From: Mycobacterium basiliense
GTDB lineage: Bacteria; Actinomycetota; Actinomycetes; Mycobacteriales; Mycobacteriaceae
Direction of reading: 5' to 3'
Length of the DNA: 64,000 bases
NCBI RefSeq assembly: GCF_900292015.1
Contig: NZ_LR130759.1
Span: forward strand, 2,356,001-2,420,000
Positions 16,651 through 30,645 of this stretch are shown piece after piece. A program made the position numbers and the translations under genes. Below the pieces are notes generated by a model that had not been told where the DNA came from, searched no databases, and was given only the letters and a program-made list of their open reading frames with translations. Position 1 is the stretch's first letter. Every line of letters begins with the position of its first letter.

Positions 16651-16723
16651 CATGAGACCGGCGCGTCTCACCGATCGTTACCACGTGGTGGTGCCAACCA
16701 TCAGTCGTTAGTAAGGTGTGGCC

Positions 16724-17158
16724 ATGCAGGCCACGGGGCCGATCCGCACGTTCTCTACCAACAGGTGGCTGCGAGCCCAAGCTCGGCCGGTGTCGGTGGC
16801 GGCGGCAGCGGGCGTGGGATACGGAAGTTGGGCCACGTTGACCCACTACCACCTCGGCATGGCCGTTGCCTTGAAGGCCGGTTCGGCACAATTCGCGCTG
16901 AGCTTGACGGCGACTCTGGTGCTGGTCATGGTTCTCGAGCAACTTTTTCGGTGGCCGTCAAACTCCACTCGTGGGTTCTGGCTCGCCGCTGTTGGGACGT
17001 CGGTCCTTGCGGCCATGTGGCTCATCGGCGGGCACGTGGTGGCGGGCACATCGAACATTGCGTTGACTATCGCGCCCAATCTAATCATTGGCACCACAGT
17101 AAATTTCGCTTACAGCAGCGCGTTGCTCGCGCACGCCAGACGCAATGCGGACAAGTAG
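16724..17158 (+). CDS. Small hypothetical integral membrane protein
   Basis: 144 aa from the ATG at 16724, preceded by AAGG seven bases upstream; a GTG two codons earlier is possible. Four hydrophobic segments are visible: VSVAAAAGVGYGSWATL, QFALSLTATLVLVMVL, FWLAAVGTSVLAAMWLIG, and NIALTIAPNLIIGTTVNF. The C-terminus is short and basic (HARRNADK). I do not recognise the family and see no catalytic motif. It stands alone between the kinase gene and the convergent mmpL gene. The 74 bases after it show no clear terminator. Confidence 0.7.
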   Translation: MQATGPIRTFSTNRWLRAQARPVSVAAAAGVGYGSWATLTHYHLGMAVALKAGSAQFALSLTATLVLVMVLEQLFRWPSNSTRGFWLAAVGTSVLAAMWLIGGHVVAGTSNIALTIAPNLIIGTTVNFAYSSALLAHARRNADK

Positions 17159-17232
17159 GTCTGCTGGGCGAAAAGGACCGCGGTGGCTGGCGGGCCCGAC
17201 CGGTCGCAGCACACCACGGCCACCCGCATCGG

Positions 17233-20172
17233 CTAACTCGACATCACCCGTGGAGTGCGGGGGTTCTGCGATTCGGCGCTGTCGGCCTGCGCGTCGGGTC
17301 GGGGCAGGAGCAGGGCACGAGCCACCGGACGCGGCCCAAGCGGCCGCAGTAGCTGACTGGCGGGGCGGGTGCGCACTTGCTGCGGCCACCAGAACCAGCG
17401 TCCCAACAGCGCGGCAATGGACGGCATCATGAATGAGCGAACGATCAGGGTGTCGAACAATAGACCCAGGCCGATGGTGGTCCCCACCTGACCGATGACT
17501 TTCAAATCGCCAATGATGAAGGACGACATCGTAGCGGCGAATACGAGGCCCGCAGATGTTACTACCGCGCCGGTGCCGGCCATGGAGCGGATAATGCCAG
17601 TATTCAGTCCGGCGTGAATTTCCTCTTTGAAGCGGGAAACCAACAACAGGTTGTAGTCAGAACCCACCGCCAAAAGCAGGATGACCGACATTGCAAGCAC
17701 CATCCAGTGCAATCCGACGCCCATGATGTACTGCCAGACGAGTACGGAAAGCCCGAAGGAGGCGCCCAACGAGAGCACCACGGTGCCCACAATGGTGATT
17801 GCGGCGACCAAACTCCGGGTAATGATCAGCATGATGATCAAGATAAGAGTGGCCGCGGCGACTCCGGCGATCATCAGGTCGTACTGGGATCCGTCGCGCA
17901 TGTCCTTATAGAAAGAGGCCGTTCCGCCCAGATAGATCCTGGCGCCCTCGAGTGGGGTTCCCTTTATCGCCTCCTTCGCCGCGCTCATGATCGGATCGAC
18001 GTGCGAGATGCCTTCAGCGGATGCGGGATCACCTTCATGGGAGATGATGAACCGTGCCGCGTGCCCGTCGGGCGACACGAATATTGCCAGGCCTCGTTGG
18101 AAGTCCGGATTGTCGAAGACTTCTGGCGGCAAATAGAACGAGTCGTCATTCTTGGCAGTGTCGAATGCCTTGCCCATCGCCGTCGCGTTCTGGGTCAGCT
18201 CATCCAGCTGGGCGTAGAACGACGCCTGGGAGGTGCGCATGGACAGGATCATTCGCTTCATGGTGGTCAACGAGGCAATCTGCGGCGGGATCTGAGCGCG
18301 CATCTGCGGCAGCAGTATGTCGAGGTTGTCCAGTTCTCCGGACAGGGCGGTGAGCTTTTCGGTGAGCTTGTCCACGCCGTCCATCGCGTCGAAGATCGAC
18401 CTCAACGCCCAGCAGATCGGGACATCGAAGCAGTGCTTTTCCCAATAGAAGTAAGACCGGATTGGCCGCCAGAAATCGCCGAAATCGGAGACGTGATCGC
18501 GAAGTTCATCGGTAATTTCCACCATGTCATGCGTTAGCAAGTCCATGTTGTGGGTTGTCGTGACGATGTTCCCCATGATGTCGTACATGCGATGCAGCGT
18601 GTCGATCGAATCCTGTATGGCGTCGGCTTGCGTCAGCATGTCGCCCATGCGTTGGTGTAGGTACTGAAGGTTTTCGATTTGCGTCGTGTTTCGCATGCTG
18701 AGGTGGAAGGGTATTGACGTGTGCTTGATCGGTGTTCCCAAAGGTCTGGTGATCGCCTGGACGCGCGCGACGCCAGGGGTGTGAAAGACGGTCCTGGCAA
18801 TCCGATCCAAGATCAGCATGCCCTCCGGATTGCGCATATCATGATCGGTTTCGACTAGCAGTATTTCCGGATTCATCCGACCGTTGGAAAAATGCCGGTC
18901 CGCCGCCTCATATCCGATGTTCGAGTTGGCGCTCGGCGGCAGATAATCGCGCATACCGTAACTCGTTTTGTACCCGGTTAAGGCGAGCAGACCGATGAGA
19001 GCGATCGCGATCGACGCGACCAGAATCGGCCCGGGCCACCGCACGATCGCCGTGCCGACCCGCCGCCATCCCCGGGTTCGCATTTTTCGTTTCGGGTCGA
19101 ACAGGTGAAAGAAACTACCGACGGTTAAGACCGCCGGACCCAGGGTGATCGCGGCAAAGACAGTGACGAGCATTGCTACGGCGCACGGCACGCCGATCGA
19201 TTGAAAATAAGGCATGCGGGTGAAGCTGAGGCAATACGTGGCACCGGCAATGGTCAATCCGGAGCCAATAACAACGTGCGCGGTTCCGCGGAACATGGTG
19301 TAGAAGGCCGTTTCCCGGTCCTCGCCACGGCCGCGAGACTCTTGGTATCGGCCCAAAATAAATATCGAATAGTCCGTCCCGGCCGCGATCACCATCAGCA
19401 CCAGCAGATTAACCGCAAAGGTCGAAAGCCCAATGATGTTGTTGTGAGCCAGCAACGAGACAACCTGTCGGGCGGCCATTAGCTCAACGACGACCATCAG
19501 CAAGGTGACAAGCGCGGTGGCAATCGACCTGTAGACGAAAACCAACATCACAAAAATCACCAGTATGGTCGTGGCGGTGACTTTCTTAATGCCTCTCTCC
19601 CCGGCCACGGACTGATCGGCGAAAACTGCGGCGGGGCCGGTGACGTAGGCCTTGACGCCCGGCGGCGGGGTTACGCCTTCCACGATCTTGCGCACCGCTG
19701 CGACGGACTCGTTGGCCAGGCTCTCGCCCTGACTGCCGGCGAGGTAGACCTGCGCGTAGGCCGCCTTGCCGTCCGGGCTTTGCGAACCGGCCGCCGTTAG
19801 TCTGTCGCCCCAGAAGTCCTGGACGTACTGGACGTGCTTCGTGTCCGCCGATACCCGATCCATCAGCTGCTCGTAGAAATGGTGGGCATCGTCGGCGAGG
19901 GGCTGGTCGCCTTCCAGGAGGAGCATGATCACGCTGTCGGTATGGAATTCATTGAACACCTCACCGACACGGTTCATCGCCTGCATGGACGGCGCGTTCT
20001 TCGGGCTCATCGACACCGTGTGTTCTTTGCCGACTTTATCCAATGAGGGGGCAAAAACGATAAGAATGGCGACGAGCCCGATCCATGCCAAGACAATGGG
20101 CAACGCCAACTTATGGATTATCCGGGCAAGGGCCAGCATGCGCGGGTGCTGCGCGGTTCTGTTATCGCTCAC
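17233..20172 (-). CDS. MmpL-family RND lipid transporter
   Basis: 979 aa, a typical MmpL length. After one N-terminal transmembrane helix (about 25-45) comes a large periplasmic loop containing the porter subdomain. A helix bundle with [19 protein letters not shown] (the MmpL Gly-x-x-x-Asp-Tyr proton-relay element) follows. A second loop of about 300 residues is followed by a second bundle with [16 protein letters not shown]. Both Asp-Tyr pairs are intact, so it should be a proton-driven exporter. The C-terminus is a short basic tail. It overlaps the Lgt-like gene by four bases and lies opposite the FAAL-PKS genes, making it the likely exporter of their product. MmpL proteins usually pair with MmpS; no mmpS gene is seen here. 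Confidence 0.95.
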
Positions 20173-21293
20173 GATGAACCGGCAGGCATGTGGTCGCTGC
20201 CGTTCTGGGCTCCGATTTCCCCCGATGGTCTATGCCCTTTCACGCGGTCCTGGTGGACGTAGAAATAGAGCTTGGAGCCCGTCACGCTGCTACGGCCGGT
20301 AATCAGAAATACAACAACCCAGATCAGCTGACAGAAGAGCAATACTAACGGATTCCAAAATGTCGCTAGACCCGCTGAGATTTCGGTGCTTTCCGTTTGT
20401 TCTACGGAAAACATGACCGCAATTATCGTGATGTAGGCAACGGTGATAATCGCCATCATCTGATAGGGGGAAAACCTGCGCAAGGTACGGTTCGATCGGG
20501 TGCGCAAGGTTTCCGAGAATATCCGCCAGAGTTGTGTCATTATCATTGTTGTCAACAATGCTCCAATGAACCAAGATTGCAGAAACAGATACGTGCCTAC
20601 GAGCGCGATTGAAATAAAGACCACAGAGGTCATCGCCTGCACCGGTGCGATGCGTATCCCCTCCAAGCGCCCTTCATACGCGGCCTTTTTCATCGCTCCC
20701 GTAAAGGTGAAGCTGAATGATGAAAGCAGCCTACGTAAGCGAGGGGAAAGCTCCTGCAGGCTTTTGCCGTAACAACACCCAAAGCTGATGCAAGCCAGCC
20801 GGCCCAATCCTTCGCCATATGCATACGCAACCGATACGACCGCGAGCGCCGGGATTACCGGGATCGTGCCACCGAGTGCATCGCCCGATGAATGATTTAG
20901 CAGGCCGATTAGCCACGGCAGCGCAAGCGTACCAGCGAATACCGCCCCACCGACTGTGAAGAGATGTTGCCTCCGCTCGATCAACCACACGATCAGCTTC
21001 GACGCCGTCCAGCACACTGCGAAAAGGAGTACGGTCAGGGCGAAGATGGCGTTTGTGGTAACGCCGATGGCGCCAAACAGTATGAATGCCATCGCCACCG
21101 CCAGCGAGTTCGAGGTGGCCTGGAAGAAGCCGTAATAAGTGAGATTTAGTCCATGCCATTCACCATTACCGCCTTTTGTCAAGGGCACGGCAGCGAGGAT
21201 CTGCCACTGCTCTTTCGGTAATGCGCGGAAGGCCCAGGTGAAGAGCGCGGCAAAGAGCGATGCCAATACAAGAAGGAAGAGTTCGTTACTCAT
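20169..21293 (-). CDS. Lgt-like (prolipoprotein diacylglyceryl transferase family) membrane protein
   Basis: 374 aa with about nine hydrophobic segments. In the middle it carries [18 protein letters not shown], which resembles the GR..C...GCCYG form of the Lgt signature in divergent Lgt-like proteins. True Lgt moves diacylglyceryl from phosphatidylglycerol to lipobox cysteines. This relative lies outside the usual lgt context, is fused by overlap to mmpL, and may act on another lipid or protein substrate. The ATG follows AGAGGG. Base composition is strikingly low: two sampled 60-base lines (20341 and 20401) are each 27/60 GC, about 45%, which suggests transfer from elsewhere. Confidence 0.72.
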
Positions 21294-22098
21294 TTATCCC
21301 TCTACTCTGGTTTCCATCAGATGACCACCACATGACCGCAATTTTGCGGACGTGTAGCACGTCGGTTTCGGCCCACGGATGGCCTCGCCCCGTGCAGACC
21401 AGCTCCGCACGCCCGCCCGCTGCATGTTATCGCAAGTCGCGATTAAAGAGGCCACATACGAAATGTTCAAAACCGGCCAACTGACATAAGCTACGCGCTA
21501 GGCTGCCAAGGCTGAAGGCGGTGCGGTGGCGAGGAGGCGAATCTTGCAAGCAGGCGTCAGTTCTCGGGCGGAACACGAGGGCCGCGGTGTCAACTTTTTC
21601 GCGAATCAAGGCAAGCTGCGTTACCCGGTGTTGGAAACCACGAAGATTACGGCCGGCACGCCTCATCTCGGCACCACGGCCCCCGCTCTTTAATGGCGGC
21701 GCGCGACGCGGCACCTGTACGGGTGCATTCCCGGTATTCACCGCCAGGCGAATTTCGAATCGTCCGTGAGACGGTGAACCCGGCCGCCCGACGCCGTCCT
21801 GCGGCGGCAGTGGTACCGACAAATCGGAAGACCATTCTGGTAAGGAGCCTTAACCAACTGGCGTCGTTGACCGGCGGCAAATGCGGACCCAAACATATGC
21901 GCGAATCACACATGTCGGGGACTCGCGAAGTAATACCGGCCTGCGTTGTGCGATCCACCCGTCGTACACCGCAAAGAGCAGCGGAATCAGGGCGGTGTCA
22001 GCGGGTGCTGGCTCAATTGCAATTGTTCGACCGCACCGAACGGGTGGCCGCGGTCGCGCCCGGCGGGGGGCGCCGGCGCATCGGCGGAGGAAACCACG
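21294..22098. other. Divergent intergenic region between Lgt-like/mmpL and FAAL/PKS units
   Basis: This 805-base stretch has no reading frame that looks like a protein on either strand; the open frames are Arg/Cys/Pro-rich and lack motifs. It must hold the divergent promoters for the Lgt-like/mmpL and FAAL-PKS-condensation units. I see no strong inverted repeat. Composition shifts from AT-richer at the left to GC-rich at the right, consistent with a junction between two blocks of different origin. Confidence 0.5.
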
Positions 22099-23841
22099 AT
22101 GGGTAGATCTCCCCAAAATCTGGCACGGATGCTGTCGGACCAGGTGGACAGCCAGAGCGATCAGGTCGCGTTCGGGTATTTGGCGGACGGCGAGGATGAC
22201 CTGATCACGCTTAGCTACGGCGAACTTGACAGCCGGGCGCGTCAAATTGCCGTTGTGCTGTCCGACCGGATCGCTCCCGGTGGTCGGGTGGTGTTGATGT
22301 GCCCACCGGATCTCAATTTCGTTGCAGGCCTTTTCGGCACCCTGTATGCCGGTCTCATCCCGGTGCCGATCTACCCACCCAATCCCGCTGCACCAGAGGC
22401 ATATGGGGCACGGCTGGCGGACGTGGTGCAGGACTGTTCGGCCGAGGCGGTGTTGACCACCGCGCTGCTCAAATCGATGCAGACAATGGTGCTGGATCCA
22501 GCGGTCAGTAGGCGAGCGGTGCCCTGGTTGGCCACCGACGACGAGGATTGCCTCGATGCCGACCCCGCCGACTGGACGGATCCGCAGATTCCCAGCAACG
22601 CCGCGGCATTGATCCAGTACACCTCGGGTTCGACCGCGGCGCCCAAGGGCGTGGTGCTGACACACGCGAACTTCTTGGCCAACCAGGTTGCGATCAGACA
22701 AACGTTTGGCATCCCAGAAGGCCCGGTAGCCATGAATTGGCTGCCGCCGTATCACGACATGGGCCTGAGCGGGAGCCTGTTCGCGCCCATCTACCGCGGC
22801 GGGTGCGGATACCTCATGTCGCCGATGCACTTCTTGCAAAAGCCGGTGCGCTGGCTGCGAGCCATTGACCGGGTTTCCGCAACCCACTCGTCCAGCCCGA
22901 ACTTTGGCTTCGAGCTGTGCCTGCGCAGGGTCAGTGATGAGCAAAAAGTGGGACTCGACTTGTCGTCCTGGCAGGTGGCGTTCTGCGGGGCAGAGCCGGT
23001 CATGGCGGATACCGCACGACGGTTCACGCAACGCTTTGCCGAGCATGGATTTCGTCGTGGGACATTCTCACCCTGCTACGGCCTGGCCGAGGCCTCGTTG
23101 CTGGTCACCGGGGCGGTGCGCGAGCTCGGTCCGCGCACCACCTGGATCGACAGGGAGAAGCTGGCGCACGGCATCGCCGTCGTGGTCGACGAGGGACAAC
23201 CCCAGGCGGTTCAAGTGGTGTCGTCCGGGCGCGCACCGACCGACAGCACGGTAGCGGTGGTTGACCAAGCGTCCGGGCAGGAGCTTCCCTCCGGGCAGGT
23301 GGGCGAAATCTGGGTCAGCGGACCAAGCGTCGCGCACGGTTACTGGCGTCGGCCCGAGCTGACCGAGACGACCTTCGGTGCACGGTTGCCCGCTCGAGAC
23401 GATGGCTTTCTGCGCACCGGCGACCTCGGCTTCAAACTTGGCGACGAGCTGTACGTGACGGGCCGGATCAAAGACATCATCATCATCGCCGGACGCAACA
23501 TCTATCCGCAGGATATCGAGCTCGCTGTGCAACGCGCCGACACCCGACTGCGCCCTGGTTGCGGAGCCGCGTTCGGAATCGTGGTGGACGAGGCCGAAAG
23601 CATTGCGATTGTGCAGGAAACCGCCGAGGAGGATCGCAGCGAGCTGGACCTGCTTGTCAAGGCGGCACGTAAGGCGGTGCTGGAAGCACACCAGATCGAC
23701 CCCGCTGCCGTCGTGTTGACCCCGGCTCGGAGCCTGCCCAAGACCACTAGCGGCAAGCTTCGCCGGGCAGCGATTCGCACTGCCTTCCTGGACGGGTCGC
23801 TACCGGTGGTGGCTCAGCTGGCAACAAGAACCTACGAGTGA
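22099..23841 (+). CDS. Fatty acyl-AMP ligase (FadD/FAAL family)
   Basis: 580 aa from the ATG at 22099, preceded by GGCGGAGG; the longer upstream frame is not needed. Adenylation motifs are in order: YTSGSTAAPKGVVLTH (P-loop), NWLPPYHDMGL, CYGLAEASLLVTG, RTGDLGF, GRIKDIIIIAGRNIYPQDIE, and a C-terminal LPKTTSGKLRR with the catalytic Lys. Length and the NWLPPYHDMGL motif fit the fatty acyl-AMP ligases that activate fatty acids and hand them to PKS carrier domains rather than to CoA. The stop overlaps the PKS start, so the natural acceptor is the N-terminal ACP of that protein. Confidence 0.93.
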   Translation: MGRSPQNLARMLSDQVDSQSDQVAFGYLADGEDDLITLSYGELDSRARQIAVVLSDRIAPGGRVVLMCPPDLNFVAGLFGTLYAGLIPVPIYPPNPAAPEAYGARLADVVQDCSAEAVLTTALLKSMQTMVLDPAVSRRAVPWLATDDEDCLDADPADWTDPQIPSNAAALIQYTSGSTAAPKGVVLTHANFLANQVAIRQTFGIPEGPVAMNWLPPYHDMGLSGSLFAPIYRGGCGYLMSPMHFLQKPVRWLRAIDRVSATHSSSPNFGFELCLRRVSDEQKVGLDLSSWQVAFCGAEPVMADTARRFTQRFAEHGFRRGTFSPCYGLAEASLLVTGAVRELGPRTTWIDREKLAHGIAVVVDEGQPQAVQVVSSGRAPTDSTVAVVDQASGQELPSGQVGEIWVSGPSVAHGYWRRPELTETTFGARLPARDDGFLRTGDLGFKLGDELYVTGRIKDIIIIAGRNIYPQDIELAVQRADTRLRPGCGAAFGIVVDEAESIAIVQETAEEDRSELDLLVKAARKAVLEAHQIDPAAVVLTPARSLPKTTSGKLRRAAIRTAFLDGSLPVVAQLATRTYE

Positions 23842-26800
23842 TGTCCGACAAGGCGGCAATCCGTTCGCTCGTGCTCGAAGTGCTCGCCGAGCACACGAAC
23901 ATGATGCCAACGGATATCGATGAGTTCGAGCCGTTCAGTTCCTATGGGCTGGGCTCGGTCGCTGCCGCTGCCGTGGCCGGTGAGTTGGCGAACCGGCTCG
24001 GGATGAAGATCGATCCACTTGCGTTGTTCGAATACCCCTGTGTGGCAACGTTGGTCGACGGTCTGACCGCCTCATCTTCCGGTCCCGGTAGGCGCAAGAC
24101 GACGGCGGTCTCGTCCAGGTCAACACACGAAGCAATAGCCATCACCGGGATGGCGTGTCGGATGCCCGGCGCGCCGAGTACCGACATGTTTTGGCAACGC
24201 CTCCTAGACGGTGCCGACGCGATTTCCGCTGTGCCGCAAGATCGCTGGCCTGCCGACGAGTCAACTGGGCTGTCCGGCGGCTTCGTCGACGGCGTCGACC
24301 TGTTCGATAACCACTTCTTCCGGGTCTCGGCGGCCGAAGCCGCCCGCATGGACCCGCAGCAGCGGTTGCTGCTCGAGGTCAGCTGGCACGCGCTGGAGGA
24401 TGCCGGAGTAGTCCCGGACAGGCTGAAGGCCAATCCGGTCGGGGTATTCGTGGGCGCGTCGTTCAGTGACTACGGAATGACTCAGCTGGCCGCCAGCGTC
24501 AATGGGCACGCGTTGACCAACACCGGCTGTGCGTTGGCACTACTTGCCAACCGGTTGTCCTACTTCTACGACCTGCGCGGGCCGAGCATGACGGTGGACA
24601 CCGCGTGCTCGTCGGCCCTGGTCGCCACGCACCTGGCGGCCCGCGCGATCCGCGCGGGTGACTGCGAGCAGGCATTGGTCGGTGCGGTCAATCTGCTGTT
24701 GACACCCCAGATTTCGCGGGGGCTGGTTGCGGCTGGAATGTTGGCTCCGGACGGCCGGTGCAAGCCATTCGACGCCCGTGCCAATGGATACGTGCGGGCT
24801 GAGGGCTGCGGCGTGCTGGTGCTCAAACCGCTCGACAAGGCTCGGCGGGACAAGGACCGGATCTATGCGGTCATCCGCGGCAGCGCAGTGGGTCAGGATG
24901 GCCTTACCAACGGTCTCACCGCGCCGAACCCACTTGCGCAACGTGCCGTGTTGTCGGCCGCGTACGCCGACGCAGGCGTTTCACCCAAAGATGTCGGTTA
25001 CATCGAGTGCCACGGCATCGGCACTCCGCTCGGAGATCGAATCGAGGCCACCGCGCTTGGCTCGGTGATCGGGACCGGTAGCGGGCGCGATGCTGAGCAG
25101 CCTTGCCTGATCGGATCGGTGAAGAGCAACATCGGGCATCTCGAATCGGCTGCCGGCATCGCGGGTCTGATCAAGGCCGCGTTGGTGCTACATACCGGCG
25201 TCGTGCCGTCCAACATCAACTACACCGAGCCCAATCCGACAATTCCGTTCGAGAAACTCGGCTTGCGGGTGGCCGCCGAAAACGTTCAACTTCCGAGCGA
25301 TGGGGTAGCACTGGCGGGCGTGAGTGCCTTCGGATTCGGCGGAACCGACGCGCACGTGGTGCTCGAATCCGTCAAAGCCATAACCGGCCAAGAGCCTACG
25401 ACCGCGACCGCGCCGACACGTTATGCAGTGTTACCGGTCTCGGCCTGCACCCAGGCCGCGCTCGCCGCGACACGAGCGGAATGGGCAGACGCCCTGGACG
25501 GCGCCGGCGAAGGCGGCATGGTTGAGCTGGTCCGCGTTGCGGCATTGCGGCGCACCCACCACCCCCTGCGGCTGGCCGTCGCGGGGTCCAGCTCTCAGGA
25601 ATTGGCCACCGCATTGCGCAACGGCGGCGCCCGAATCCAAACCCTGAACGGCGCACCGAAACCCTTGTTCGTATTCGCCGGACACGAAGCCCAGTCGGTT
25701 GACCTGCTGCGAGGTCTCGCCGCTGAGGAGTCGCTGGTCGCATCGGTGCTGGCGCGCTGCGACGAGGCGCTGGCCGAATGCGCTGACTGGTCGCTACGGG
25801 AACTCGCCGCCACCACCGATCCTCGATTGTTTGCCGACACCGCGTTTGTCCAGCCCGCGCTGTGTGCGACCCAAATCGCACTCAATGCGCTGTGGCGGTC
25901 GATGGGAGTGCAACCTGGCGCGGTCCTAGGCCACGGTGTCGGCGAGATCGCCGCGGCCGAGGCAGCCGGCATACTCGACATTCCGACCGCCATGCGCCTG
26001 TCCTACGAGCGCGGTCGGCTGACGGCGCCATTGCATGGTCATGGACGTATGCTCGCCATCGGCTTACCCGAGGCCGACACGGCCGCTTTGGCGGAGCGCC
26101 ACGGCGTGGATGTGGCTGCGATAAACAGCCCCGATACAACTGTGCTCTCCGGCGCGGCTGATCGGCTAGAAGAGATCGCCAAGACGGTGAGCACGCGGGG
26201 CACGTTCGTCCGCTGGCTGAATGGCCACTACCCCTTCCATAGCTCGCTGGTCCAACCCGCAGCCGAGCAACTCGTGGCGGTGCTGAGCGGACTCGAGTCG
26301 CGCGAAGGTGCGGTGCCATTCGTCTCCGGCACCGGGGGAGCGGTACAGGACGGTCGATCGCTAGATGCGACCTATTGGGGCCACAACCTCCGGCATACCG
26401 TGCGGTTCGCCGCGGCCCTGCACATCGCAGTCGAGCTGGGCGCGGACACGGTGCTCGAGGTTGGCGCGCGCCCCGTGCTGCATGCCGCGATTCGCCGTAC
26501 CGTCCAGTCGCTCGACCATCAGGGCCCGGTGGTGTTGCCGGCCAAGCGGGTTCGCCACGATGATGAGTTGAGGTCGACGTATGAGACGGTCGCGGATCTG
26601 TACTCGCGAGGCTGCAATATCCGCTGGCGGCACAAGTCGACACCCGTCGTCGAGCCCGGGAGATTTCGGGTCAGTCCACCCCGGGCCCGGGTGGTCCAGG
26701 CCCCGCGGTACCCGTTCGATCCGGCGCGGCACTGGTTGCGTCCTCCCCCCGTCACTGTTGGGACCGGTCGGTCGGCGGGTCCGTTGGTCGGCGCCGAAAT

Positions 26801-27977
26801 TGATTTGTCCAACAGCGACGGTCGGCGCGTTTGGGAGGTTTGGCTGAGCCTGGATTCATTGCCCCACCTCGGCGGCTACCGTGTCGCCGGCGCGGCGGTG
26901 TTGCCGGCCAGCGCGGTGATCGAAGGTGTGGTCGTGCTCGCCACGGTCATTGGCATACCCGACGCCGACGTCGTCGATGTCGTCATCTATGAACCGCTGC
27001 TGCTCGGTGTGGAGCCGATTGCTGTGCAGTGGACCGTGGTTCCCGGTGATCTGGGTGAGTTCGCAGTCACCATGCACGCCCGCCGTGACTGCAGCTGGCG
27101 GCTGCAGGCCAGCGCGTCGCTTCGGCCACCGGTGGATGCCGCCCTGGCTCCGGTCTCCGATCGTGCGGCCGGGGCAAGAAGCCGGTGCGACGAGCAATTG
27201 TCGCCGCGGCAGGTGTACCAGATGCTCGCCCGGCACGGCTCCGACTATGCACCCGAGCTGCGCGGCGTGCGCCAGGTCTGGCGGCGCGCGGACGAGGCCG
27301 TAGCGCGCATCAGCGTGGACAACGGCGATTTCACCCGACTGCTGGACTCCGCCTTCCACGTGGTCGCTGCCGCGGCGGGGATGCCGCCTACCAACCATGG
27401 ACCGCGCCCGTTCCTCCCGGTGAGCGCCGAGTTCGTCCGCCATGCACCCAGCGCGCGGTTGCTGGGTGAGGTCGACGTCACCGTTGCGCTGCGGAACGGT
27501 GACGCTGACGAAATTGTATGTGACTTAACACTTTTCGATACCAACGGCGTGCCGATTCTGCTCGTCGGTGGGCTGAGCCTGCAGGCGCACGGTGCGCAGC
27601 CGAGCTTGCCGCAGTGCGACGCCACCACGGCCGTAACGGCTGTGGGTGCCGGTCTGAGGTCGCGGCCCGATATCGGGGAGTATGTGGCTCCGCGCAATGA
27701 ACTCGAGCAGCGGATCGCCACGATTTGGGCGACCGCGCTGGGCGTCGACAGGCTGAGCGTGTTCGACGGATTCTTCGAACTCGGTGGCGACTCGGTGTTT
27801 GCCAACCAAATCCTGATCGAGATCAACCGCATGCTCGGCGTCCGGATCGAGCCGGAGCGGGCGTTTCGAGCGCTGACCGTCGCAGGTCTTGCCGAGCTCG
27901 CCGAACAGGAGATGCTCAGCCTGCTGGCGAACATGACCGACGATGAGGCGGCGGCCCTTGCCGGCTGGGAGGAATAG
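23841..27977 (+). CDS. Type I PKS, ACP-KS-AT*-DH*-ACP, with degenerate AT and DH
   Basis: 1378 aa from the ATG at 23841, overlapping the FAAL stop; a GTG one codon earlier is possible. Domains: N-terminal ACP with phosphopantetheine Ser39 (YGLGSVAA); KS (about 95-510) with Cys256 (DTACSSA) and both His residues (ECHGIGTP, SNIGHLES) intact; AT (about 600-900); a double-hotdog DH-like region (about 930-1220); C-terminal ACP with Ser1318 (GGDSVFA). In the AT, the nucleophile motif GHSxGE reads GHGVGE (Gly699, codon GGT at 25935) and the oxyanion motif GQGxQ reads GHEAQ. In the DH, the catalytic Asp-His of the LxDHxVxG motif is Gly-Tyr (Tyr1013, codon TAC at 26877), while the later Asp motif (LLDSAFH) is kept. 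No KR, ER or thioesterase is present. The protein probably accepts a fatty acyl chain from the FAAL and passes it, extended or not, to the C-terminal ACP. Confidence 0.93.
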   Translation: MSDKAAIRSLVLEVLAEHTNMMPTDIDEFEPFSSYGLGSVAAAAVAGELANRLGMKIDPLALFEYPCVATLVDGLTASSSGPGRRKTTAVSSRSTHEAIAITGMACRMPGAPSTDMFWQRLLDGADAISAVPQDRWPADESTGLSGGFVDGVDLFDNHFFRVSAAEAARMDPQQRLLLEVSWHALEDAGVVPDRLKANPVGVFVGASFSDYGMTQLAASVNGHALTNTGCALALLANRLSYFYDLRGPSMTVDTACSSALVATHLAARAIRAGDCEQALVGAVNLLLTPQISRGLVAAGMLAPDGRCKPFDARANGYVRAEGCGVLVLKPLDKARRDKDRIYAVIRGSAVGQDGLTNGLTAPNPLAQRAVLSAAYADAGVSPKDVGYIECHGIGTPLGDRIEATALGSVIGTGSGRDAEQPCLIGSVKSNIGHLESAAGIAGLIKAALVLHTGVVPSNINYTEPNPTIPFEKLGLRVAAENVQLPSDGVALAGVSAFGFGGTDAHVVLESVKAITGQEPTTATAPTRYAVLPVSACTQAALAATRAEWADALDGAGEGGMVELVRVAALRRTHHPLRLAVAGSSSQELATALRNGGARIQTLNGAPKPLFVFAGHEAQSVDLLRGLAAEESLVASVLARCDEALAECADWSLRELAATTDPRLFADTAFVQPALCATQIALNALWRSMGVQPGAVLGHGVGEIAAAEAAGILDIPTAMRLSYERGRLTAPLHGHGRMLAIGLPEADTAALAERHGVDVAAINSPDTTVLSGAADRLEEIAKTVSTRGTFVRWLNGHYPFHSSLVQPAAEQLVAVLSGLESREGAVPFVSGTGGAVQDGRSLDATYWGHNLRHTVRFAAALHIAVELGADTVLEVGARPVLHAAIRRTVQSLDHQGPVVLPAKRVRHDDELRSTYETVADLYSRGCNIRWRHKSTPVVEPGRFRVSPPRARVVQAPRYPFDPARHWLRPPPVTVGTGRSAGPLVGAEIDLSNSDGRRVWEVWLSLDSLPHLGGYRVAGAAVLPASAVIEGVVVLATVIGIPDADVVDVVIYEPLLLGVEPIAVQWTVVPGDLGEFAVTMHARRDCSWRLQASASLRPPVDAALAPVSDRAAGARSRCDEQLSPRQVYQMLARHGSDYAPELRGVRQVWRRADEAVARISVDNGDFTRLLDSAFHVVAAAAGMPPTNHGPRPFLPVSAEFVRHAPSARLLGEVDVTVALRNGDADEIVCDLTLFDTNGVPILLVGGLSLQAHGAQPSLPQCDATTAVTAVGAGLRSRPDIGEYVAPRNELEQRIATIWATALGVDRLSVFDGFFELGGDSVFANQILIEINRMLGVRIEPERAFRALTVAGLAELAEQEMLSLLANMTDDEAAALAGWEE

Positions 27978-28130
27978 CGGCGGTCGGGAGCGATACCATA
28001 GACCGAATTATGAGCTTGCCGTGGGAGTTTCGAAAGCCGCACCGGCCCGTGCTCGGGCTGCGGAGTGCACACCAAGCCCGCCGTGTTTGCATTGTCAGGC
28101 ACGTTGGCTTCCGGCTGGCGTGGAGGGCGG

Positions 28131-29576
28131 ATGGCAGCTGAGGAGCCGACCCTGTCCCCGGCCAAAGCGGCGTTGCTTGCCCGCTGGCGCAATGGCAGCC
28201 TCCGGCCGACCGGTCCAGCTCAACTGATTGCGGGGGCACCGTCCGCGCTGGCCGAGTGTTCTTACGAACAACAATTCTTGTTCGACAGGCAGCGTGAGAC
28301 ACCGGACTTGCAGCTATACAACATCGGTTTCTGCGCGCGCCTGGATGCGCCGGTTGACGTCGAGGTGTTCCGGCTCTGCGCCCAGGAGATGTCCATGCGG
28401 CACGAGACGCTGCGAACCAGGATCGATCCGACGCCGCAGAATCCGATGCAGCGAATCGGTCCGGCGCCGCATTTTGATCTGGTGATCATTGACCTGCGCG
28501 ACCGGGGGGCCGGCACTGCGGAGCGAGCCGCCTTAGATCATGCGCAGGGGTTGCTGCGCAACCCGTTCGATCTCACCAGCGGGCCGCTGGTGCGGTTGGG
28601 CTTGTACCGGATTGCAGACAATGCCACTGTGCTGGCGATCGTGGCCCATCACCTGATCGCCGATGGCTGGTCACTGGATATCGTGCTGTCCGAGCTGGCC
28701 GCGTTGTATGGGGCCACGATCGCGGGCCGCAGAGCCCAGTTGCCGTCGTTGCCGGTGCAATACCGAGACTTCGCGCGGTGGCAAGCGGGTTGGCTGAAAC
28801 GGGGTGAGTGGCGCAGCGACGCCGAGTTCTGCCGGAATCTGCTCGCCGATCTGCCGCCCGCCAATCTTCCTTGGGACCGTGAGCCACCCGCCGAGCGCGA
28901 CTTCCGCTGTGCCCACACGCACTTCGCGTTCACGCCGGCGCAGTCCACCGGGCTACGCGATTTCTCGCGGCGCGAAGGTGCGTCGTTGTTCATGACGATG
29001 CTTGCTTGCTTACAGGTGCTGCTGGCGCGTACCGCGGGCATTGACGACGTCGCGGTTGGTGTCCCTATGGTGAACCGTCAGCACCAGCAAACCCAGCAAC
29101 TGATCGGCTACTTCTCGAACTACACGGTGGTGCGCACCAACATGGCCGATTCTCCGGCGTTCCGTGACGTCCTGACCAGGGTCCGCGAAGGCGTGCTGCA
29201 GGCGTTGGCTCGTCAGTCATTGCCGTTGCCGCTATATCTCGAACAAGAGAATCGGCATCTGGATCAGCACGGAAAGCCGAACTGGCCGAACCTGGTCAGG
29301 GAGCCGCTTTACCGGGCACAATACAATTTCAGACCGCCGGTGAAGTCGACCGAGTTCGCCGGGGCAACTTTGCAGCCTCGCCCGCTCAACCGAGCCGTCA
29401 GTACGTATGACTTCACGTTGTTGATGGAGGACGCCGATCCGTTGTACGGAAAGATCGAGTACGCCGTCGACATATTCGACGCGGCGACGGTGGACACACT
29501 GGTGACCGCGTTCTTCGCCATCATTGATCAGGTGGTGGCTAACCCCGACCTGCGGATCGCCGACGTGGCGATCTGA
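28131..29576 (+). CDS. Condensation-domain acyltransferase (NRPS C / Pap-like)
   Basis: 481 aa from the ATG at 28131, with GGAGGG just upstream; a longer frame from 28065 is possible. It is a stand-alone condensation domain: SYEQQFLFDRQRE near residue 44, catalytic HHLIADG at 173-179, and the later NRQHQQTQQLIGYFSN segment typical of condensation enzymes. Such proteins transfer an ACP-bound acyl chain onto an amine or alcohol. In mycobacteria the related Pap proteins esterify sugars or diols. Placed 153 bases after the PKS with the same polarity, it is the likely chain-release and transfer enzyme. The acceptor cannot be read from sequence. Confidence 0.88.
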   Translation: MAAEEPTLSPAKAALLARWRNGSLRPTGPAQLIAGAPSALAECSYEQQFLFDRQRETPDLQLYNIGFCARLDAPVDVEVFRLCAQEMSMRHETLRTRIDPTPQNPMQRIGPAPHFDLVIIDLRDRGAGTAERAALDHAQGLLRNPFDLTSGPLVRLGLYRIADNATVLAIVAHHLIADGWSLDIVLSELAALYGATIAGRRAQLPSLPVQYRDFARWQAGWLKRGEWRSDAEFCRNLLADLPPANLPWDREPPAERDFRCAHTHFAFTPAQSTGLRDFSRREGASLFMTMLACLQVLLARTAGIDDVAVGVPMVNRQHQQTQQLIGYFSNYTVVRTNMADSPAFRDVLTRVREGVLQALARQSLPLPLYLEQENRHLDQHGKPNWPNLVREPLYRAQYNFRPPVKSTEFAGATLQPRPLNRAVSTYDFTLLMEDADPLYGKIEYAVDIFDAATVDTLVTAFFAIIDQVVANPDLRIADVAI

Positions 29577-29578
29577 CC

Positions 29579-29618
29579 AGGCACCTGAGTGCGCCGGGCT
29601 CACCGTCGGCGGGTGCCT
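29579..29618. terminator. Candidate bidirectional stem-loop between convergent genes
   Basis: AGGCACC at 29579-29585 and GGTGCCT at 29612-29618 form a perfect 7-base inverted repeat with further GC-rich partial pairing inside. It fills the 41-base gap between the condensation gene and the convergent protease gene. No U-tract follows, as is common in mycobacteria. Terminator function is inferred. Confidence 0.35.
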
Positions 29619-30583
29619 CAGTTCGGCCCGGTAAGCGGGGTCAGATTCCATTTGTCCAGCCATGGCCGTACCAGCTCGGCGATGGAAAAGGTTGCCGGGA
29701 TCGAGCACCCGGGGTTGGGGTCGTTGGGCCGCCCGGCGCGGATGTGGATACCCACTGCGATTGCGCTGCCATCGTTTTGGATGGCGTATACCGGACCTCC
29801 GGAATCGCCGCACTGACTGGCCGCTAGGAACTCGACCTTGCTGTCGGTGACGTCGGTGATCTGCCCGCATTCGGCCCTGCCGGTACGCATGCCGAACTTG
29901 CAGAGCTGCTGGCCTATCCGCAGGTTATCTGCCACCCCGGTGACCGGTAGCGACGCGGCAATGGCCGAGGTTCGTGGAACGTTGCCGGAATCGAGCACGA
30001 TCAGGCCGATGTCGTGAGCTTCGCCGCGAAGTCCCTCGCTGATGGTCTGGTTGAACGTGCCCACTATCACGTACGGGCTGGTTCCGGTGTAGTTGATGCT
30101 TACCTTGCTCGCTTCCCCCGGCTTGTTGCAGTGACCGGCGGTGAGCACACCGGTCTTGCCGGTGCTGGTGCGCACCAAAAACCCGGCTGTACAGCCCATT
30201 CCCCCGGAACCGTCGGCATAGCTGACCGCGATCCCGGCGCCGGGACCGATGGCATCGGTACTCGGCAACGGGATCGGGGGCCGCAGCGTGGTCGCGGTCC
30301 GACCCGGCGTCCAGATGAAAGCCACGAATGCGACGGCGCAGACCAGCGCCACGATCGAAAGTCTCACGCCGTCGGTTCGTCGACGTTCCGGCGCCGAGTA
30401 GGGCACATCGGTGCCAGGGAAGACCTGTGCACGCCGGTCACGATTCCGTTGGATGCGATTGGCCAAGAATGGGCCGGCCGCCACGGCCAGACACAGCAGC
30501 GCCCCGACCACCAGTAGTGCGGTGCGAGCCGGGGACTGCTGCAGCGCCACATTCGAAAGTTCGCGGGCGCTAACCCTCACCAT
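29618..30583 (-). CDS. Membrane-anchored trypsin-like (S1) serine protease
   Basis: 321 aa from the ATG at 30583 (MVRVSARELSN); a TTG at 30604 would add seven residues. Two hydrophobic segments (about 20-40, ALLVVGALLCLAVAAG; and about 74-92, LSIVALVCAVAFVAFI) precede the protease domain, probably placed outside the membrane. The triad is clear: His in LTAGHCN, Asp in EAHDIGLIVLD and Ser in CGDSGGP. Cysteine pairs (CTAGF/GHC, CKFG/ECG) suit extracytoplasmic disulfides. No PDZ domain or lipobox is visible. Its substrate is unknown. It lies at the right end of the accessory block, convergent with the condensation gene. Confidence 0.88.
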   Translation of the reverse strand: MVRVSARELSNVALQQSPARTALLVVGALLCLAVAAGPFLANRIQRNRDRRAQVFPGTDVPYSAPERRRTDGVRLSIVALVCAVAFVAFIWTPGRTATTLRPPIPLPSTDAIGPGAGIAVSYADGSGGMGCTAGFLVRTSTGKTGVLTAGHCNKPGEASKVSINYTGTSPYVIVGTFNQTISEGLRGEAHDIGLIVLDSGNVPRTSAIAASLPVTGVADNLRIGQQLCKFGMRTGRAECGQITDVTDSKVEFLAASQCGDSGGPVYAIQNDGSAIAVGIHIRAGRPNDPNPGCSIPATFSIAELVRPWLDKWNLTPLTGPN

Positions 30584-30645
30584 TTGAGAGATCTTTTCAG
30601 CCAACCGGGAGCGCGCTCAACCGTTGCTCCGGGCGGCAACCCCGG

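What the first reader, a model, noticed from the sequence alone, without database searches (positions are those of the whole stretch)
23841..27977. PKS with intact ketosynthase but dead acyltransferase and dehydratase domains
Read directly: the AT nucleophile motif is GHGVGE instead of GHSxGE (GGT codon at 25935), the AT oxyanion motif GQGxQ is GHEAQ, and the DH active-site Asp-His is Gly-Tyr (TAC at 26877). KS Cys and both His residues, and both ACP serines, are kept. A module that cannot select its own extender and cannot dehydrate, but has two ACPs flanking a KS, may act as an acyl shuttle from N-terminal to C-terminal ACP. It may otherwise use an AT in trans. The frame is intact over 4.1 kb, so this is not a decaying pseudogene.
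Basis: partly seen in the sequence, partly recalled or inferred. Interest (0 to 1): 0.82.

Follow-up and report, generated by a model that had tools for sequence, protein, structure and literature searches.

The report
Polyketide synthase turned fatty-acyl relay
A mycobacterial genome carries, as the only one of 396 genomes searched from its genus, a polyketide synthase gene whose unit-loading and dehydrating domains each lack a key catalytic residue and which ends in a peptide-synthetase-type carrier, so it would likely hand a fatty acid on to a neighbouring enzyme instead of lengthening it.

Summary
The 1,379-aa ORF at 23838-27977 has an intact ketosynthase triad, an acyltransferase with Gly for the nucleophile Ser (GHGVGE) and GHEAQ for GQGxQ, and a dehydratase with Tyr for its catalytic His. 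183 of 185 other AT rows compared keep the Ser. Corrections: the catalytic Asp of the DH is kept; there is no KR or ER; and the last carrier is NRPS-like (FFELGGDS), unlike all 41 carriers found in 22 FAAL-fused PKS frames. A FAAL gene overlaps the PKS start and a stand-alone condensation-domain gene follows; with an MmpL gene they lie in a block of about 13 kb that three relatives lack at an otherwise continuous site. No ortholog turned up in 396 genomes of the genus. Best reading (0.45): a non-extending fatty-acyl relay, FAAL to ACP1 to KS to end carrier to condensation enzyme. Rivals: malonyl supplied in trans (0.27), decay (0.2), malonyl-free joining of two acyl chains (0.05). Sequence alone does not decide: the KS keeps the His needed for decarboxylative condensation but has two changes seen in none of 152 other KSs. 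New variant of a known kind.

The parts
22099..23841 (+). Stand-alone fatty acyl-AMP ligase (FAAL, 580 aa from the predicted start ATG 22099); its stop overlaps the PKS start
   Evidence: AMP-binding above cut-off; FAAL subfamily models below theirs; 49% to FAAL part of P0001; GGAGG before ATG; SLPKTTSGK motif; TGA overlaps GTGATG
23838..27977 (+). PKS protein, ACP - KS - AT0 - DH0 - PCP-like carrier, 1,379 aa; no KR or ER
23838..24089 (+). N-terminal ACP (ACP1), serine 40 at 23955
   Evidence: 56.5 bits with the first-ACP model, 39.3 module ACP, 12.3 PCP
24129..25373 (+). Ketosynthase: Cys257 (24606), His392 (25011), Lys429 (25122), His434 (25137) kept; Thr394>Ile (25017) and Asn504>Asp (25347) in none of 152 others
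25659..26540 (+). Acyltransferase fold lacking the nucleophile Ser (Gly700, GGT 25935) and GQG (His616-Glu617, 25683-25688); Arg725 and His801 kept
   Evidence: (pLDDT mostly 75-95 over this domain)
26760..27620 (+). Dehydratase stretch lacking the catalytic His (Tyr1014, TAC 26877), YGPxF changed to YAPEL (27246); Asp1170 (27345) kept
27678..27974 (+). C-terminal carrier of NRPS (PCP) type, FFELGGDS, serine 1319 at 27792
28131..29576 (+). Stand-alone condensation-domain protein, 481 aa from the predicted start 28131 (153 bases after the PKS stop), HHLIADG at 28647
   Evidence: (GGAGGG before ATG)
17233..20172 (-). MMPL-family transporter, divergent from the FAAL-PKS-C genes, in the same accessory block
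   Evidence: TIGR00833, 1058 bits, cut-off 875; no match in the six relative stretches
20169..21293 (-). 374-aa predicted membrane protein of no recognised family, in the same block
   Evidence: 65
16651..29617 (.). Accessory block of about 13 kb between a histidine kinase gene (ends 16650) and a serine-protease-like gene (29618-30604, -)
   Evidence: kinase, protease and VTT genes next to each other in L132, L136, L137 without the block

Best explanation
The protein has a ketosynthase with its catalytic residues in place, an acyltransferase without its nucleophile serine, a dehydratase without its catalytic histidine and an NRPS-type carrier at its end, and it is predicted to act as a relay that would pass a fatty acid, likely loaded by the neighbouring ligase, to the stand-alone condensation enzyme without extending it. 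Steps: (1) FAAL makes fatty acyl-AMP and loads ACP1 (inferred from family and gene order). (2) The KS Cys takes the chain from ACP1 (inferred; Cys-His-His kept). (3) No extender is loaded by the module itself, because the AT has no nucleophile (shown at sequence level); the KS hands the chain to the end-carrier serine (inferred). (4) The condensation protein (HHxxxDG kept) joins it to an unknown amine or alcohol (inferred). (5) The divergent MmpL may export the product (guess from neighbourhood). AT and DH would stay as folded scaffold (inferred; the AT fold is modelled with fair to high confidence; the DH was not modelled).
For: AT and DH changes at near-invariant positions. No KR or ER, so no beta-keto processing in the module. 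End carrier: PCP model 72.5 bits versus 42.4 for PKS module ACPs; 0 of 41 carriers in 22 FAAL-fused frames lean to PCP, including those of five loci where a condensation-domain frame follows; FFxLGGxS in 19 of 19 PCPs, 3 of 142 module ACPs, 0 of 47 first ACPs. KS: Thr394>Ile (150 of 152 others Thr, 2 Ser) and Asn504>Asp (151 of 152 Asn, 1 Ile). FAAL - PKS - C order, FAAL and PKS overlapping. AT more diverged than KS or FAAL relative to the family: distance ratios 2.65, 1.67, 1.63. KS-AT modelled with mean pLDDT 79.
Against: The KS keeps the His of HGTGT, whose loss PMC4661987 takes as the mark of non-elongating KSs; [quoted passage not shown] A relay does not need a KS: a C domain could take the chain from ACP1. 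No ortholog shows that the arrangement is kept by selection. The AT divergence may partly reflect another AT subfamily of origin (nearest rows in the AT tree were outgroup ATs; against outgroups the ratios differ less, 1.19, 1.08, 1.07). The PCP set was gathered by similarity to the window carrier, and the window carrier's lead (+30 bits) is smaller than that of left-out PCPs (+68 to +87). The end carrier could instead hold an amino acid loaded in trans.
Confidence: 0.45

Rival explanations
1. Extension with malonyl supplied in trans: a separate malonyl transferase (for example the FabD-type enzyme) loads the end carrier, the KS performs one decarboxylative condensation, and a beta-ketoacyl chain goes to the condensation enzyme.
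For: KS Cys, both His and Lys kept. The same genome has a separate 322-aa AT frame with intact GHSVGE in a stretch that also holds two KS matches (L050). AT-null modules are rescued by discrete ATs, including malonyl-CoA:ACP transacylase, in engineered systems (passages of PMC6164871).
Against: No AT gene identified beside the operon; end carrier is PCP-like rather than ACP-like; two unique KS changes.
Confidence: 0.27
2. A degenerate gene set: a FAAL-PKS-NRPS fragment acquired and now decaying, with no current product.
For: Changes in AT and DH, two odd KS residues, no KR/ER, a condensation protein without a recognised amino-acid adenylation domain beside it, no ortholog in 396 genomes of the genus. 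KS breaks 10 of 106 and AT 5 of 34 near-invariant positions; only 7 and 5 of 152 others reach those shares.
Against: Three intact frames with plausible starts; codon-position GC pattern of AT and DH as strong as in KS (GC1/2/3 0.74/0.51/0.76 and 0.75/0.50/0.78 versus 0.68/0.50/0.77); neutral drift to a like share of AT changes gave a mean of 5.2 stops and a stop-free frame in 2.9% of 1,000 runs, indels not modelled.
Confidence: 0.2
3. Malonyl-free joining: the KS condenses two FAAL-loaded acyl chains, one on each carrier, so that no AT is needed.
For: [quoted passage not shown] two carriers flank the KS here.
Against: No sequence link to NocG tested; the C-terminal carrier differs strongly from ACP1, so one FAAL loading both is less likely; by tree distance the KS is nearest to KSs of FAAL-fused PKSs that have their own ATs.
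Confidence: 0.05

Closest known systems
FAAL-ACP-KS-AT-DH-ER-KR-ACP initiating PKSs of Actinomycetota (L051 and L085 checked for all domains; others incl. named mycobacteria L113, L117, L118, L129)
   Same: FAAL, ACP1 and KS-AT are homologous (KS-AT up to 51% identical); in five loci (L051, L113, L117, L118, L129) a condensation-domain frame follows
   Different: FAAL is a separate gene here; ER, KR and PKS-type end ACP are absent; AT and DH each lack a catalytic residue; end carrier is PCP-like
Pks13 with FadD32 (mycolic acid condensation)
   Same: Separate FAAL, N-terminal ACP, KS, AT, second carrier (Pks13 plan partly recalled); Pks13 KS-AT among structural matches
   Different: Scores far below the Pks13 and FadD32 model cut-offs (727 of 2100; 385 of 975); no thioesterase found; AT without nucleophile
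Non-elongating KS0 modules of trans-AT PKSs
   Same: KS between carriers with no extender loading in the module (recalled)
   Different: KS0s described in PMC4661987 (passages) lack the HGTGT His; kept here. An AT domain is physically present
Other Gly-for-Ser ATs: Polyangium L112 (GHGVGE) and Streptomyces L073 (GHGCGE)
   Same: Same nucleophile replacement
   Different: L112 has a second AT after the first in the same frame and Gln for the AT His; L073's is in a second PKS frame. Probably independent (inferred from architecture, no tree)
PKS modules with inactive DH, such as DpnP2 of diperamycin
   Same: DH domain kept in the protein though judged inactive (passages of PMC10888640)
   Different: There the ATs all keep GHSxGE and a KR is present

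Membership tests
cis-AT type I PKS module | KS with Cys-His-His | tested here: met
cis-AT type I PKS module | AT with nucleophile Ser in GHSxG | tested here: not met
   Gly700
cis-AT type I PKS module | PKS-type ACP after the processing domains | tested here: not met
   PCP-like
trans-AT PKS | AT gene in the same cluster acting in trans | tested here: not met
   No AT among the block's genes examined; an AT-only frame exists elsewhere in the genome (L050)
trans-AT PKS | KS falling in the trans-AT KS clades | not tested
   Tree held KSs with ATs in cis only
Non-elongating KS0 | Loss of the HGTGT His | tested here: not met
   His392 kept; Thr394 is Ile
Non-elongating KS0 | No chain extension in vitro | not testable with these tools
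   Needs protein
Pks13 | NCBIfam equivalog NF040607 at cut-off | tested here: not met
   727 bits, cut-off 2100
FAAL | FAAL-type adenylation domain with catalytic Lys motif | tested here: inconclusive
   Apart from a long NRPS/PKS model, the best models are FAAL subfamilies, all below cut-off; PKTTSGK present; FAAL insertion not examined
NRPS condensation domain | HHxxxDG and Condensation model above cut-off | tested here: met
   (233 bits, cut-off 30.6)

The most novel reading that the evidence does not exclude
A polyketide synthase that makes no polyketide: a chimaera of a PKS front (ACP-KS-AT-DH, AT and DH disarmed) and an NRPS carrier, whose ketosynthase serves only to carry a fatty acid from a FAAL-loaded ACP to an NRPS-type carrier for a stand-alone condensation enzyme, making an acylated lipid in one mycobacterial lineage.
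Probability: 0.4. Interest if true: 0.65.

Novelty: new variant of a known kind. Interest (0 to 1): 0.45.

Why it matters
If the relay reading holds, it shows a cis-AT module disarmed into a lipid-transfer device, and gives a compact natural case for asking whether a KS can pass an acyl chain from a PKS ACP to a peptidyl carrier without extension. It also marks a lineage-restricted lipid-type locus beside an MmpL. If the trans-loading reading holds, it is a natural example of what has been engineered with AT-null modules.

Tried and rejected
Sequencing or strain error as the cause of the AT change: not favoured, since several separate motifs are changed. Membership in Pks13/FadD32: cut-offs not met. 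Ordinary PKS ACP at the end: rejected. A looser test, the linker string APR before the carrier, did not separate the groups (1 of 19 NRPS carriers, 6 of 142 PKS ACPs) and is not used. In the carrier tree ACP1 is far from everything and PCPs are among its nearest rows, against the model scores; a tree of such short domains is not relied on. Mobile-element borders of the block: no tRNA in the window and no convincing repeats at its edges. Orthologs: none (43 pattern matches, none confirmed) nor beyond the window's own genome and distant homologs; in the genome searches only the best first-look candidates per genome were scored (15, 3, 4), so a miss is possible. Plasmid records: nothing at 60% or above. 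Papers: searches returned nothing; some searches returned listings in which I saw no report of this arrangement; only passages were read of PMC6164871, PMC11837247, PMC13324839, PMC4661987, PMC13324335, PMC10888640, and the abstract of PMC4186864.
Full report
Observation. The frame 23838-27977 (+) codes for 1,379 aa without a stop. Pfam finds KS (98-462 plus extension), AT (611-904), DH (982-1255) and two carrier stretches; there is no KR or ER. Two corrections: the DH Asp is Asp1170 and is kept, and YGPxF is changed to YAPEL. The roles of these motif residues are family knowledge.

Is it unusual? Of 34 other AT rows (33 from the same genome, 26 distinct sequences, and one from G516; four partial hits dropped) all keep the Ser. 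With the loci added, 183 of 185 other rows keep it; the two exceptions are a Polyangium AT that is followed by a second AT in its frame and an AT in a second PKS frame of a Streptomyces locus. Among 152 other KS-AT didomains, the position of Glu617 is Gly in 150. The DH His is H in 56 of 60 rows that include the window, Y in 3 and S in 1 (some rows may be overlapping frames).

The ketosynthase. Cys257, His392, Lys429 and His434 are kept. Thr394>Ile in HGTGT and Asn504>Asp in GGTNAH are found in none of the 152 others. That these positions touch the pantetheine arm or the gating loop is recalled from FabB/FabF work, not tested. Near-invariant positions broken: KS 10 of 106 (7 of 152 others reach this share), AT 5 of 34 (5 of 152 others reach it). 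So both domains deviate, the KS outside its catalytic residues.

The last carrier. Models built from 19 NRPS carriers of this genome and 142 PKS module ACPs give 72.5 versus 42.4 bits; left-out PCPs scored +68 to +87 and left-out ACPs -44 to -88 on the difference (12 of each). The window carrier at +30 lies between, on the PCP side. A caveat: the 19 PCPs were chosen because the window carrier matched them; 18 of the 19 stretches show GKLD, which I recall as the end of an adenylation domain. Of 189 PKS-frame carriers two exceed zero, and of the 41 inside FAAL-fused frames none. FFxLGGxS occurs in 19 of 19 PCPs, 3 of 142 module ACPs and 0 of 47 first ACPs. NCBIfam NRPS models hit the same stretch. 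The N-terminal ACP scores best with the first-ACP model. I read the gene as a PKS front joined to an NRPS carrier; how it arose is inferred.

Neighbourhood. FAAL 22099-23841, whose TGA overlaps the PKS start; then the PKS; then, 153 bases after its stop, a condensation protein 28131-29576 with HHLIADG, each with a plausible start. That the three form one operon is presumed. Among the block's genes examined there is no adenylation domain other than the FAAL, no thioesterase and no AT gene. Divergent from them lie an MMPL transporter and a 374-aa membrane protein. The genome is mycobacterial by its RipA, InhA and LipL models above cut-off.

Distribution. In 396 genomes of the genus (own included), the C-terminal part of the PKS has at E 1e-25 only the window's own match and one distant one (36%; a FAAL-fused PKS with normal residues, L051), and of the condensation protein's matches at E 1e-50 none other than its own exceeds 33% identity. 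Beyond its own genome there is nothing in 394 genomes of the class at E 1e-70, 200 of the order at 1e-80, nor in genome contigs with the whole protein. These sets overlap, and few candidates per genome were scored, so misses are possible. In six relatives' stretches (one only 3 kb long) none of MMPL, 374-aa gene, FAAL, PKS or condensation gene was matched; in three of the six the kinase, protease-like and VTT genes that flank the block lie next to each other, and in the other three the kinase and protease were not matched either. The block is an accessory insertion by this comparison; its borders carry no clear mobile-element mark.

Descent. A same-order genome has FAAL-ACP-KS-AT-DH in one frame with normal residues, 49% (FAAL) and 43% (PKS) identical. 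22 FAAL-fused frames were found; of three checked by Pfam, two carry ER and KR and one KR. In the FAAL tree the window joins the mycobacterial branch; in the KS tree it lies outside the FAAL-fused group, beside the branch to outgroup PKSs, though its nearest rows by distance are FAAL-fused ones (midpoint rooting, support values not printed). Distances to the family relative to distances within it: KS 1.67, FAAL 1.63, AT 2.65; against outgroups 1.08, 1.07, 1.19. This is consistent with relaxed constraint on the AT, though the AT may also come from another subfamily.

Decay or use? AT and DH keep the coding pattern of codon positions. Neutral drift simulated on this frame until a like share of the still intact AT positions had changed (4 of 29) gave a mean of 278 substitutions and 5.2 stops, with no stop in 2.9% of 1,000 runs (indels not modelled). 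This argues against long neutral decay but does not exclude recent decay.

Mechanism. The AT cannot use the ping-pong mechanism, which uses the GHSxG serine (abstract of PMC4186864). With no KR, the DH would have no substrate in its own module even if active. What remains is FAAL to ACP1, KS, end carrier, condensation enzyme. Relay without extension is my first choice; extension with malonyl from a separate transferase is the main rival because the HGTGT His is kept and AT-null modules can be rescued by discrete ATs (passages of PMC6164871). A malonyl-free joining of two acyl chains, as a review describes for nocuolin A (passage of PMC11837247), is possible but less likely. A model of the KS-AT part (28 sequences, mean pLDDT 79, pTM 0.60) shows the AT as a folded domain and aligns with KS-AT didomains over nearly the whole length, but with modest TM-scores (about 0.5) and large rmsd, so the placing of the two domains is not to be trusted.

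Verdict. Real, unusual, and not explained by one error; a disarmed PKS found in one genome of the genus, in a lipid-type gene group. Its function is inferred. New variant of a known kind.

Noticed in passing
window 20169-21293 (-): 374-aa predicted membrane protein with no Pfam, NCBIfam or PDB sequence match; it holds GRLACISFGCCYG, which recalls prolipoprotein diacylglyceryl transferase-like proteins (from memory, not tested).
   Followed up: partly
window 18000-22000: GC is 57-59% in the two 2-kb windows over the MMPL and 374-aa genes, against 63-68% in the other windows from 1 to 40 kb; values of 58-62% recur between 40 and 64 kb, so this is weak as a sign of foreign origin.
   Followed up: no
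L112:788-7585 (+), Polyangium sp. 15x6: PKS frame with two AT domains in a row, the first with GHGVGE and Gln for the AT His: a disarmed AT kept beside a second AT.
   Followed up: partly
L073, second PKS frame, Streptomyces sp. JJ36: An AT at a locus with a FAAL-fused PKS has GHGCGE and a broken GQGxQ motif: a further AT change of this kind.
   Followed up: partly
G000:C1:3097000-3103000: Several short KS and carrier pieces in short frames, one with an internal TGA: may be a broken PKS gene in the same genome.
   Followed up: no
window 29618-30604 (-): Serine-protease-like gene related to the Rv1815 family, below the model's cut-off; flanks the accessory block and is matched in three of six relatives.
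   Followed up: partly
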